A stretch of DNA of 21,624 nt from a virus: IMG/VR virus record IMGVR_UViG_3300009181_000406, positions 1 through 21,624 of that record; one strand, written 5' to 3'. A program made the translations under genes and the position numbers. Numbering within the stretch: position 1 is the stretch's first letter; every line of letters begins with the position of its first letter. Positions 5,716-8,285 of the stretch are shown here, piece after piece. The notes beneath the pieces are model-generated. The model was given only the letters and a program-made list of their open reading frames with translations, ran no database searches and was not told the DNA's origin.

Positions 5716-5969
5716 GCGGGTGGGATGACCTAGAGGCAGAGCCTGCTGCCTATGAACCTGATCAAGACAGGGTAGATCTGAACCTCCAGGTGGCAAAAAC
5801 CTTTGCCAGCGCTGAAGGTCAAAAAGTGTTGGCGTGGCTGCGAGAGTTTTATCTTGAGCAACCATGTTGGCAACCAGGCTCGGAGTCTTCACTAGGAATG
5901 TTCAGAGAAGGACAAAACAGTGTGATCCGAGATATTGAAAACCGCATTAGAAAGGCGAAACAACGATGA
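5712..5969 (+). CDS. Bbp19-like phage protein
   Basis: 85 aa, starting at GTG 5712 in a GTGA overlap with the preceding stop; GGAG at 5700-5703 provides an RBS 8 nt upstream. The core FASAEGQKVLAWLREFYLEQ, followed by PCWQPGSESSLGMFREGQNS and a terminal basic helix IRDIENRIRKAK, matches the small Bbp19-like domain named after the Bordetella phage BPP-1 protein. These proteins sit in portal/scaffold neighbourhoods of podoviruses; biochemical function is not established to my knowledge. The stop overlaps the scaffold start (ATGA). Confidence 0.85.
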   Translation: MSGWDDLEAEPAAYEPDQDRVDLNLQVAKTFASAEGQKVLAWLREFYLEQPCWQPGSESSLGMFREGQNSVIRDIENRIRKAKQR

Positions 5970-6733
5970 GCGAAGCAAATGACAACCCTGGCCTGCTTGA
6001 ATCTGCAGCATCTGAGGATGCACCAGAGGCGCAGATAACCGAGGGCCAAGAGCAATCGATCAGTCACGTACAAGGTGACCCACAAGCAGACGATACACCA
6101 CTTGAAAGACCAGACTTTTGGCCTGAGAAGTTTTGGAACAAAGACGAAGCAGCTCCCGATTTAGAAGGAATTAGCAAGTCTTATGTAGAGTTGGAAAAGA
6201 AGTTTCGAGCTGGTGGCCACAAACCCCCAGAGAATGGCGAGTACGACATTGAGACATTGGGACTCAAAGGGGATGACCCAGTAGTGAAGTCTTATGTTGG
6301 ATGGGCGCAAAAGTATGGCATCAGCCAACAAGCTTTTGAAGACCTGGCACGGGAAGTTACAGGCATTGGCAACGACAATGTTGCACAAACGAAACAATCT
6401 ATTCAACAAGAGTTGGAAGATCTTGGACCTAATGCCAAAGCTATTGTTACCAATATGGCTCAGTGGGGTAGGGGCATGGTTAGCAAAGGTATTTGGAGCC
6501 AAGATGAGTTTACCGAGTTTACCCGCTGGGGAGACACGGCAAAGGGCATTAGAACGCTCCAAAAGTTAAGAGAGACGTATGAGGGCAGAGTGCCAACAGA
6601 GACGCTTAAAAACGATTCTGGTGGCTCTGTGTCTAAAGATGAGCTAGAGCAAATGGTAGGAAACCCTGAGTACAAGACCAATCCTGCCTATCGTGCTAAA
6701 GTTGAAAAGCTGTTCGATAAGATGTATGGTTGA
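5966..6733 (+). CDS. Capsid assembly scaffolding protein
   Basis: A 255-aa acidic protein with a disordered Glu/Asp/Gln-rich N-terminus (about 1-45), then RPDFWPEKFWNKDEAAPDLE and a helix KSYVELEKKFRA. This 'P-x-K-F-W ... LAKSYxELEKK' pattern is the usual start of the T7 gp9-type scaffold family. The remainder is mostly helical and charged, ending in a helix-turn-helix-like NPAYRAKVEKLFDKMYG, where scaffold proteins commonly contact the capsid protein. It directs procapsid assembly and leaves before DNA fills the head. It is the last gene of the upstream operon (ATGA overlap with the Bbp19-like gene) and is followed 27 nt later by a strong intrinsic terminator. Confidence 0.9.
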   Translation: MSEANDNPGLLESAASEDAPEAQITEGQEQSISHVQGDPQADDTPLERPDFWPEKFWNKDEAAPDLEGISKSYVELEKKFRAGGHKPPENGEYDIETLGLKGDDPVVKSYVGWAQKYGISQQAFEDLAREVTGIGNDNVAQTKQSIQQELEDLGPNAKAIVTNMAQWGRGMVSKGIWSQDEFTEFTRWGDTAKGIRTLQKLRETYEGRVPTETLKNDSGGSVSKDELEQMVGNPEYKTNPAYRAKVEKLFDKMYG

Positions 6734-6760
6734 GTTGGCATGATCTCCTGTTGGAGTTTG

Positions 6761-6785
6761 ACCCCTTGACAGGGGTTTTTTTTTT
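6761..6785 (+). terminator. Rho-independent terminator after the scaffold gene
   Basis: A 6-bp stem ACCCCT (6761-6766) / AGGGGT (6771-6776) with a TGAC loop is followed by an unbroken run of 10 T (6776-6785). A small CTCC/GGAG hairpin (6745-6756) precedes it. It closes the terS-to-scaffold operon and carries part of a promoter inside it (see promoter at 6766-6793). Confidence 0.88.
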
Positions 6786-6793
6786 GGCATAAT
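6766..6793 (+). promoter_or_regulatory. Sigma70 promoter P1 nested in the terminator
   Basis: A perfect -35 TTGACA (6766-6771) lies across the loop and stem of the terminator hairpin. A -10 CATAAT (6788-6793, 5 of 6 consensus) follows after 16 nt that include the terminator T-run. The predicted start is about 6799-6801. It faces the structured RNA at 6800-6901. The context flanking the -10 (GGC before, AG after) is shared with the capsid promoter at 7277-7303. Confidence 0.7.
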
Positions 6794-6799
6794 AGATTC

Positions 6800-6901
6800 T
6801 GTCAAGCATAGCAGTTAGACAACCCAAAGCCTTCAAGCTCTGGCTTTCTATCCCGAAAGGGACACGCTGCTATGTGGAAAGCTAGAACTTGAGGGTTTTT
6901 T
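6800..6901 (+). ncRNA. Candidate structured small RNA or attenuator leader
   Basis: This roughly 100-nt unit sits between promoter P1 and a second intrinsic terminator and has no plausible ORF. Two alternative folds can be drawn. Fold A is a 19-nt arm 6830-6848 pairing with 6877-6895 (one C-A mismatch, two G-U), ending in six T, which is a terminator. Fold B is a three-way junction: P1 helix CATAGCAG (6807-6814) / CTGCTATG (6867-6874), P2 AAAGCC (6826-6831) / GGCTTT (6842-6847), and P3 TCCC-GAAA-GGGA (6851-6862) with a GNRA tetraloop. P2 uses bases needed by the terminator arm, so folds A and B compete; the P1 helix alone could coexist with A as a pseudoknot. No Rfam family is recognised. Helices are read by hand. 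Confidence 0.6.
6830..6901 (+). terminator. Second intrinsic terminator, long stem
   Basis: Arms 6830-6848 and 6877-6895 form about 18 pairs including two G-U and one internal C-A mismatch, followed by TTTTTT (6896-6901). The apical part contains the TCCC-GAAA-GGGA hairpin. The stem is far longer than usual for a simple terminator, which supports a regulated or structured RNA. Confidence 0.75.
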
Positions 6902-7151
6902 CGTTTTCCTGACTCGCAGGCTATGCGGTACGTCAGTGGTAGTCTGTTAAATAAACCTGTTACACGGCAAGCCAAAGCAGGAATGGTGGGCTAAGAATAG
7001 AGCCAGGTGGTAGGTCAGCAATGACTGCAAGTCTGTTCAGTGTGATGCGATGGCATGGCTCCGTAGGGCATACCTCAAAGCATAAGCGAACTGTTGGTCT
7101 TTACCACGGTAAGGCTGTGCTTTGCTCCAACATTCACCATAGGGCAGTTAT
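6902..7151 (+). other. Non-coding stretch rich in potential hairpins
   Basis: I see no convincing gene in this 250-nt stretch. Potential helices are: CTGAC/GTCAG enclosing CGCA/TGCG (6909-6936); GAGCCA (7000-7005) / TGGCTC (7056-7061) enclosing GTCA-GCAA-TGAC (7014-7025) and ATGC/GCAT (7045-7056); and TGTTGG (7092-7097) / CCAACA (7127-7132), extendable past a bulged C to GAA/TTC, enclosing CTTTAC-CACG-GTAAGG (7099-7114). Short ORFs here (for example 6923-6994, 7021-7215) lack a ribosome binding site and have unlikely composition. It may be 5' leader of the 33-aa gene at 7166 or part of a larger structured RNA. Short helices of this length also arise by chance. Confidence 0.4.
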
Positions 7152-7165
7152 AGGAGATAGCAGCA

Positions 7166-7267
7166 ATGAGGATATGTGCTTGTGGTGGAAGTATAGAAGT
7201 AGCAGAGTTGACTAGTGGCAAGGTGTGGATGTATTGCTCTTGTTGTAAAAGATATGAAATATTTTAA
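7166..7267 (+). CDS. 33-aa zinc-ribbon-like mini protein
   Basis: A short ORF from ATG 7166 to TAA 7265-7267. AGGAG at 7152-7156 is a strong Shine-Dalgarno 9 nt before the start, unlike any other small ORF in this region. The product begins MRICACGGSIEVAEL and ends KVWMYCSCCKRYEIF. The pairs CACGG and CSCC, 18 residues apart with an aromatic residue before the second pair, and the tail 'C-K-R-Y-E' resemble minimal zinc-ribbon knuckles (CxCG ... WxCxxC-x-x-Y). It would be one treble-clef or ribbon unit binding a single Zn ion, possibly contacting nucleic acid or RNA polymerase; that role is inference. It ends 9 nt before the capsid promoter. Confidence 0.6.
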   Translation: MRICACGGSIEVAELTSGKVWMYCSCCKRYEIF

Positions 7268-7303: not shown

Positions 7304-7309
7304 AGTGTT

Positions 7310-7442
7310 ACTGATAACCGCAAGGCCAGTGACGATAGTAGTCTATCCAGGGGTGCGCTGTAAGGCACAAGTCTTGGCCCAGAGTATTCTGGACAACCGT
7401 TGGCGATAAACATTTCATCAACCGTTTTCTAGGAGAAAACAA
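7310..7442 (+). promoter_or_regulatory. Structured 5' leader of the capsid mRNA
   Basis: A three-way junction can be drawn. The closing stem is GGCCA (7324-7328) plus GAC (7331-7333) with GTC (7371-7373) plus TGGCC (7375-7379). Arm 1 is GATAG-TAGT-CTATC (7334-7347) and arm 2 is GTGC/GCAC (7353-7368). An adjoining hairpin CCAGA-GTAT-TCTGG (7379-7392) follows. A competing upstream hairpin ACTG/CAGT with inner CC-GCAA-GG (about 7310-7330) overlaps the closing stem. The leader ends with TAGGAG (7430-7435) 7 nt before ATG 7443. It may stabilise the very abundant capsid mRNA or regulate its translation. No known riboswitch class is recognised. Confidence 0.5.
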
Positions 7443-8285
7443 ATGGCGATTGGCATTTCCACCGCATTTGTAACCCTGTTCGACACGGAAGTTAAACAAG
7501 CGTATCAAGCTGATGCTGTCTTGCGTAATGCTGTCCGTTTGCGTACTGGAGTTACAGCAAGCACACACAAGTTCCCCAAAATTGGATCTGGCGTTGCACA
7601 AGTTCGTGTACCCCAAACTGATGTGGTTCCTCTTAACGTCACTTATTCACAAGCAACTGTTACATTGACAGACTATATTGCTGCTGAATACTCTGACATA
7701 TTTAACCAGGCTAAAGTTAACTTTGATGAGCGTCAAGAACTCGTACAAGTTGTTGCTAAAGCTATTGGCCGTAGATCTGACCAGATGATCATTGACGCAT
7801 TGGCAGCATCAAGCACCAGCTTGACTGTTGCTACTAGCATCGGTGGCGCTGGTACAAACTTGAACATGGCTAAATTGCGTGAAGCTGCACGTTTATTGAA
7901 TACAAACAATGTGCCTGCAGAAGATCGCACAATGTTGATTCATGCATCACAGTTGTCTAGCTTGTTGTCTGAGACTGCTGTCACAAGTTCTGACTTCAAC
8001 AGCGTCAAAGCATTGGTGCAAGGTGATATTAGTAGCTTCATGGGATTTAACTTCATCACTATTGGTGACCGTTCTGAAACTGGTTTAACTGGTGGTGGTT
8101 CTGGTCAAACCCGTAAGGTGTACGCTTTCCACAAGATGGCAGTTGGCATGGCTGAGAGCATGGCAATCCGCAGTGAGATCAACTACATTCCTGAGAAAAC
8201 CTCATGGCTTGTTAGCTCGATGTTCTCTGCTGGCGCTATTGCTATCGATGCTGGTGGCTGTGTTGACATCACCTGTACAGAATAA
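7443..8285 (+). CDS. Major capsid protein
   Basis: A 280-aa protein of the HK97-fold phage capsid type that forms the icosahedral shell. Supporting features are a position right after the scaffold and before the tail tubular genes, an N-arm followed by a beta-rich E-loop-like stretch (about 40-75, VPQTDVVPLNVTYSQATVTL), and a long spine-helix region with ERQELVQVVAKAIGRRSDQM followed by IIDALAA. An A-domain-like second half includes MLIHASQLSSLL and a final MAVGMAESMAIRSEINYIPE strand/helix typical of capsid proteins. It is shorter than T7 gp10A (345 aa). It has its own consensus promoter, structured leader and strong RBS (TAGGAG), consistent with very high expression. No 10A/10B-type frameshift extension is seen. 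Confidence 0.93.
   Translation: MAIGISTAFVTLFDTEVKQAYQADAVLRNAVRLRTGVTASTHKFPKIGSGVAQVRVPQTDVVPLNVTYSQATVTLTDYIAAEYSDIFNQAKVNFDERQELVQVVAKAIGRRSDQMIIDALAASSTSLTVATSIGGAGTNLNMAKLREAARLLNTNNVPAEDRTMLIHASQLSSLLSETAVTSSDFNSVKALVQGDISSFMGFNFITIGDRSETGLTGGGSGQTRKVYAFHKMAVGMAESMAIRSEINYIPEKTSWLVSSMFSAGAIAIDAGGCVDITCTE

What the first reader, a model, noticed from the sequence alone, without database searches (positions are those of the whole stretch)
6800..6901. Phage RNA with competing three-way-junction and terminator folds
A promoter is followed within 10 nt by a compact segment that can fold as a GNRA-capped three-way junction closed by an 8-bp helix (6807-6814/6867-6874), or as a 19-nt-arm terminator (6830-6848/6877-6895, T6). 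Bases 6842-6847 are claimed by both, which is the layout of a riboswitch or attenuator, or of a stand-alone sRNA with a pseudoknot. It is not a known riboswitch to my eye. Such an element between scaffold and capsid genes would be a new control point for virion assembly.
Basis: partly seen in the sequence, partly recalled or inferred. Interest (0 to 1): 0.72.

Follow-up and report, generated by a model that had tools for sequence, protein, structure and literature searches.

The report
Kissing-loop terminator RNA of freshwater phages
A previously uncatalogued ~100-letter phage RNA, which starts with a small hairpin whose loop docks into its own transcription-stop hairpin, turns out to be a widespread module in freshwater phages that sits directly in front of larger folded RNAs and probably meters how much of them is made.

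Summary
The RNA is real, but its architecture differs from the one proposed. A promoter (TTGACA 6766, CATAAT 6793) lies next to a ~100-nt RNA that begins at a 5' hairpin (6800-6803/6818-6821) and ends at an intrinsic terminator (6828-6848/6877-6897, T6). The 8-bp helix 6807-6814/6867-6874 covaries strongly. It pairs the 5' hairpin loop with the terminator's apical region, so it is a kissing pseudoknot that can coexist with the terminator. Nothing matches Rfam. It sits at several genomic sites and is essentially always followed by a large conserved RNA; 84 of 84 type-A RNAs have one, two of them recognised by eye. It is absent from phages whose capsid protein is 94-95% identical, so it is an accessory cassette, not a core virion-assembly switch. 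Best reading: a kissing-locked terminator/attenuator that releases a short RNA and meters read-through into the downstream RNA or gene cassette. No transcript data were available.

The parts
6760..6786 (+). intrinsic terminator of the upstream (scaffold-side) transcript; its loop supplies the -35 of the next promoter
   Evidence: promoter-in-terminator layout in 32 of 39 MCP loci with the module and 0 of 36 without
6766..6793 (+). sigma70-type promoter TTGACA-16-CATAAT (TG before -10)
   Evidence: 11 of 12 matches; conserved spacing to the 5' hairpin
6800..6821 (+). P1: 5' hairpin, stem 6800-6803/6818-6821, 14-nt loop holding the pseudoknot strand
   Evidence: three core pairs invariant in 13 homologs; P1 varies but stays paired in subfamily alpha
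6807..6814 (+). L: 5' strand of the kissing/pseudoknot helix, CATAGCAG
6867..6874 (+). L': 3' strand of the kissing/pseudoknot helix, CTGCTATG
6828..6897 (+). T: terminator helix 6828-6837/6888-6897 and 6839-6848/6877-6886 with one conserved C.A mismatch (6838.6887)
   Evidence: 100% paired in 13 homologs, 3 pairs with two-sided change; MFE
6851..6862 (+). P3: apical hairpin TCCC-GAAA-GGGA
   Evidence: 4 of 4 pairs with two-sided changes
6896..6901 (+). U-run of the terminator, predicted 3' end of the ~100-nt RNA
6909..7139 (+). type-A large non-coding RNA immediately downstream; no promoter seen in between
   Evidence: 87-94% nucleotide identity in close relatives; alignment; element upstream of 82 of 84 type-A RNAs by descriptor and the other two by eye
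7064..7070 (+). X1: internal copy of the covarying direct repeat (TAGGGCA) in the type-A RNA
7140..7146 (+). X2: second copy of the direct repeat, just 3' of the conserved CACCA boundary

Best explanation
The segment is the promoter-proximal module of a phage RNA cassette: a kissing-loop-locked intrinsic terminator acting as an attenuator. Transcription starts at the 5' hairpin P1. P1 forms first and presents a 7-9 nt loop. P3 and the matching strand L' appear next, and L pairs with L'. Finally the 3' arm of the long terminator hairpin emerges, the terminator forms, and most transcripts end at about 6901 as a compact ~100-nt RNA in which P1, the kissing helix and the terminator coexist. The fraction that escapes continues into the large structured RNA starting 10-30 nt later (type A here) and whatever gene follows. 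Because L:L' forms before the terminator is complete, and a ~20-bp stem cannot easily wind while L:L' is closed, the strength or timing of the kissing contact plausibly sets the termination/read-through ratio. Shown: promoter, helices, covariation, order of elements, lack of an intervening promoter, co-occurrence with large RNAs. Inferred: actual termination and read-through, the regulatory role of L:L', any ligand or protein. The terminated RNA may also act by itself.
For: Covariation in the window's subfamily: 99.8% of cells paired, 11 pairs with two-sided change, 0/500 shuffles, and it collapses when slid by one column. In the main subfamily there are 25 distinct loop 7-mers; 65 of 66 elements are 7/7 paired, and the exception (L043) is a misparse that pairs fully by eye; swapped partners average 4.9/7. 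All four Watson-Crick pair types occur at one kissing position. Promoter at fixed spacing. Every downstream sequence cluster with several members is a conserved, apparently non-coding segment; element upstream of 82 of 84 type-A RNAs by descriptor against 1 of 252 shuffles, the other two by eye. Alpha, beta and gamma elements all precede the same type-A RNA, as expected of an exchangeable control module. Folding series gives the L:L' fold before, and the terminator after, the 3' arm emerges. 7-9 bp kissing helices fit closed-loop topology.
Against: No transcript, termination or probing data. No conserved anti-terminator helix other than L:L' was found, and no ligand-like conserved pocket. A constitutive terminator with an independently acting sRNA would show the same covariation. 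The downstream RNA could also be reached from upstream transcription. Energies ignore pseudoknots, and the topological argument is qualitative.
Confidence: 0.48

Rival explanations
1. A stand-alone trans-acting phage sRNA: the ~100-nt kissing-loop RNA is the functional product (for instance binding a host protein or RNA), and the terminator simply ends it.
For: Own promoter starting at P1 and own terminator, all sequence between them structured; strong covariation including the apical hairpin; a dispensable cassette like a moron.
Against: Does not explain why the element is always followed by a large structured RNA, nor why three sequence-divergent versions precede the same RNA.
Confidence: 0.3
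2. Riboswitch or attenuator with two mutually exclusive folds as the first reader drew them: three-way junction against terminator sharing 6842-6847.
For: Intermediate transcripts of the window itself are predicted to fold as the junction.
Against: Inner hairpin broken in 11 of 13 homologs without compensation; GNRA loop not conserved; full-length terminator favoured by 13.7 kcal/mol.
Confidence: 0.07
3. A processive antitermination RNA like HK022 put or B. subtilis EAR: the nascent structure modifies RNA polymerase so that later terminators are ignored.
For: Promoter-proximal structured phage RNA upstream of long leaders and early genes.
Against: The structure is itself built into a strong intrinsic terminator, unlike put; no sequence or model match.
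Confidence: 0.08
4. Ordinary insulated promoter plus terminator with no regulatory role; the pseudoknot only protects the RNA from exonucleases.
For: All parts are common; the U-run and stem are strong.
Against: A plain terminator needs no perfectly covarying 5' kissing partner, and three subfamilies keep one.
Confidence: 0.07

Closest known systems
Transcription attenuators and terminator-type riboswitch leaders
   Same: Promoter-proximal structured RNA ending in an intrinsic terminator upstream of the controlled sequence
   Different: No conserved separate aptamer or classical anti-terminator helix; the 5' hairpin loop pairs into the terminator's own apical region; what follows is another structured RNA more often than a gene start
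HK022 put RNA (PMC9378689) and B. subtilis EAR
   Same: Nascent phage or bacterial RNA elements near promoters that affect termination (from the cited abstract; EAR from general knowledge)
   Different: put suppresses pausing and termination and does not end in a terminator; no sequence or model match here
Type III antitoxin RNAs (ToxI class)
   Same: Promoter, pseudoknotted RNA, terminator, then another element (general knowledge)
   Different: Not tandem repeats, and no toxin-like gene follows in the window; downstream is a large RNA, sometimes with a small or HNH ORF
Kissing-loop RNAs such as ColE1 RNAI/RNAII
   Same: 7-8 nt hairpin loop pairing fully with another loop (general knowledge)
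   Different: Here intramolecular, joining the 5' hairpin to the transcript's own terminator

Membership tests
Any curated RNA family (Rfam 15) | Covariance-model score at or above gathering threshold | tested here: not met
   Window and 18 relatives none; permissive searches give no meaningful hit on the element
Intrinsic-terminator small RNA | Promoter at the 5' end of the RNA | tested here: met
   (sequence evidence only)
Intrinsic-terminator small RNA | GC-containing hairpin followed by U-run, conserved | tested here: met
Intrinsic-terminator small RNA | Discrete transcript detected | not testable with these tools
   no RNA data held
Riboswitch/attenuator | Two mutually exclusive conserved folds, one containing the terminator | tested here: inconclusive
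Riboswitch/attenuator | Controls a downstream sequence in cis | tested here: inconclusive
   Consistent co-occurrence with a downstream large RNA and no promoter seen between; no expression data
HK022 put-type antitermination RNA | Two adjacent stem-loops without terminator, promoting read-through | tested here: not met
   Element contains its own terminator
Type III antitoxin RNA | Tandem pseudoknot repeats plus endoribonuclease toxin gene downstream | tested here: not met
   One copy in the window; downstream is type-A RNA and a 33-aa ORF

The most novel reading that the evidence does not exclude
The element is the expression and control module of a new kind of mobile phage RNA cassette: the downstream type-A RNA carries an internal ~8-nt guide (X1) identical to the DNA or RNA just beyond its 3' boundary (X2), changing together between loci without any complement in cis, as expected of an RNA-guided element that recognises its insertion site, sometimes paired with a small HNH nuclease.
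Probability: 0.1. Interest if true: 0.93.

Novelty: new variant of a known kind. Interest (0 to 1): 0.7.

Why it matters
It defines a widespread structured RNA family of freshwater (apparently betaproteobacterial) phages that is in no RNA database and is overlaid by a hypothetical-protein annotation in the one deposited genome found to carry it. The fold, a 5' hairpin loop docked into the transcript's own terminator, is an unusual and easily testable way to set termination efficiency. Its consistent coupling to large, diverse structured RNAs points to an unrecognised RNA cassette that moves between phage genomic sites.

Tried and rejected
Known riboswitch, sRNA or ribozyme: no Rfam hit at gathering or permissive thresholds. 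tRNA/tmRNA: none in the window or nine loci. Three-way junction as conserved fold: rejected. Virion-assembly control: rejected as a general role, since the element is absent from close relatives and present at other sites. Named phages: nucleotide search with the window region and three other module types found nothing; one deposited genome matched a type-B module. The capsid relative MEP301 has only a 184-nt intergenic region. Bacterial genomes: only two betaproteobacterial MAG contigs. X repeat as base-pairing partner in cis: complement no commoner than with swapped X, inside or outside the module. Type-B RNA: no X-like direct repeat found, but that alignment was polluted. MAFFT alignment A2 of subfamily alpha misregisters L' by one base between classes, so alpha pairs were counted by script instead. 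A Pfam search of the small ORFs failed on a coordinate error and was not repeated.

Full report
WHAT IS THERE. The window is a virus contig with podovirus-like structural genes: TerL, head-tail adaptor, a scaffold-like ORF at 5966-6733, major head protein at 7443-8285, tail genes. The 709 nt between scaffold and head gene are mostly non-coding. They hold, in order: a terminator; an overlapping promoter whose -35 lies in that terminator's loop; the finding; a ~230-nt conserved segment (type-A RNA); a 33-codon Cys-rich ORF (7166-7267); a second promoter; and a conserved structured 5' UTR of the head gene.

CHECK OF THE OBSERVATION. Promoter, 8-bp helix and terminator are as described. The region folds far better than shuffles (z -5.4). 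An 8-bp perfect helix alone occurs in 5% of shuffles, so relatives were needed.

HOMOLOGS AND COVARIATION. Eighty loci with related head proteins and later pattern scans gave 13 distinct sequences of the window's own subfamily (beta). On their alignment the structure P1 + L:L' + terminator + apical hairpin is 99.8% paired, with 11 pairs showing two-sided changes and none of 500 shuffles reaching it; slid controls fall to about 50% paired or less. L:L' alone is 100% paired with two-sided changes at 4 of 9 pairs. L sits in the loop of a 5' hairpin and L' in the apical region of the terminator, so the helix is a kissing pseudoknot.

A LARGER FAMILY. By eye many other loci share this layout with different sequence. 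Among 66 de-duplicated alpha elements there are 25 distinct loop 7-mers; 65 pair 7/7, and the exception, L043, is a misparse that pairs fully when read by eye. Swapped partners average 4.9. A third subfamily (gamma) has an unrelated sequence but the same 5'-hairpin-to-terminator linkage, judged by eye only. The alpha pattern occurs in only two of the held bacterial genomes, both betaproteobacterial MAG contigs. One deposited phage genome, MW202484, carries it, with an annotated hypothetical protein overlapping the RNA segments.

BOUNDARIES OF THE RNA. The -10 box ends 6-7 nt before P1 in 84 of 114 elements, and 75% have a promoter score of 8 or more against 8% of shuffles. At the scaffold/head site the terminator-embedded promoter is present in 32 of 39 loci with the module and 0 of 36 without. 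The RNA thus starts at P1 and ends at the U-run; everything between is structured.

WHAT IT IS COUPLED TO. The element is followed within 10-30 nt by one of about ten unrelated conserved, apparently non-coding segments. Starting from the other side, 82 of 84 type-A RNAs have the element upstream by an automatic descriptor, against 1 of 252 shuffles, and the two misses show it by eye. Alpha, beta and gamma elements all precede the same type-A RNA, so element and downstream RNA are exchangeable parts. Modules sit between scaffold and head genes, 26 nt after terminase genes, and before RepO-like genes. Phages with 94-95% identical head protein lack the module (230-nt intergenic). Type-A RNAs end 8-60 nt before diverse small ORFs: HNH nucleases, Zn-ribbon mini-proteins, RepO-like and others (assignments are by sequence motif and eye, not by a family search).

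HOW IT MOST LIKELY WORKS. In a folding series without pseudoknots, transcripts up to about 6889 favour the L:L' fold (-26.8 kcal/mol), and the finished transcript the terminator (-42.3, against -28.6 with L:L' forced). L:L' can therefore form before the terminator. A ~20-bp stem is hard to wind while L:L' is closed (inference). Afterwards both can coexist as a kissing complex, which fits the 7-9 bp length. With no promoter visible between the terminator and the large RNA, the downstream RNA would be reached by read-through. I therefore read the element as an attenuator whose kissing contact sets the share of terminated and read-through transcripts, at 0.48. A stand-alone sRNA is the main rival, at 0.30.

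COMPARISON AND NOVELTY. No Rfam family matches. It works like a promoter-proximal attenuator but lacks a known aptamer or a conserved classical anti-terminator. It is not put-like (PMC9378689), because it contains its own terminator. I found no published description in the literature searched, which is not proof of absence. It is a new RNA family and a new variant of a known kind.

A SURPRISE NEXT DOOR. Type-A RNAs contain an 8-nt direct repeat, one copy inside the RNA (window 7064-7070) and one just past its 3' boundary (7140-7146). In 90 loci the two copies match over 7.2 nt on average against 3.1 nt for swapped copies. This is the strongest covariation in the alignment, with 26 different repeat sequences in the 68 best cases, and no complement nearby. 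I cannot explain it; an RNA-guided element is the boldest reading not excluded.

LIMITS. No expression, probing or infection data; contigs are metagenomic; hosts are inferred from two MAG contigs and are uncertain; related sequences are not independent, so shuffle counts are not probabilities.

Noticed in passing
window 7064-7070 and 7140-7146; 90 type-A loci: An ~8-nt direct repeat, internal and 3'-flanking, changes in concert between loci (mean match 7.2 against 3.1 nt for swapped copies) and has no complement in cis.
   Followed up: partly
window 7309-7441: Conserved structured 5' UTR directly upstream of the major head protein, with compensatory changes in 8 of 25 predicted pairs; similar sequence upstream of the head gene in 67 loci.
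   Followed up: partly
window 7166-7267: 33-codon Cys-rich (zinc-ribbon-like) ORF MRICACGGSIEVAELTSGKVWMYCSCCKRYEIF with homologs after many type-A RNAs.
   Followed up: partly
L006, L054, L156, L347 and others: A second large RNA type (type B, ~250 nt) follows the element in many loci (one downstream cluster of 76) and often ends close to an ATG; internally deleted remnants exist (L070, L156).
   Followed up: partly
L021 about 2680-2900; L018, L019: Another apparently structured non-coding segment (GGGGAAAGCGGATGCTGG...) at the same intergenic site, full length or truncated.
   Followed up: no
MW202484.1 33533-33892 (L347 1147-1506): Annotated hypothetical protein UOF77725.1 overlaps the kissing-terminator element and the type-B RNA; probably not a real gene.
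   Followed up: partly
L300, L291, L205 and other gamma-type elements: In the gamma subfamily the 3' strand of the 5' hairpin can also extend the L:L' helix, a possible real strand-exchange switch.
   Followed up: no
L024, L151: Element truncated in its 3' half while the downstream type-B RNA is intact.
   Followed up: no
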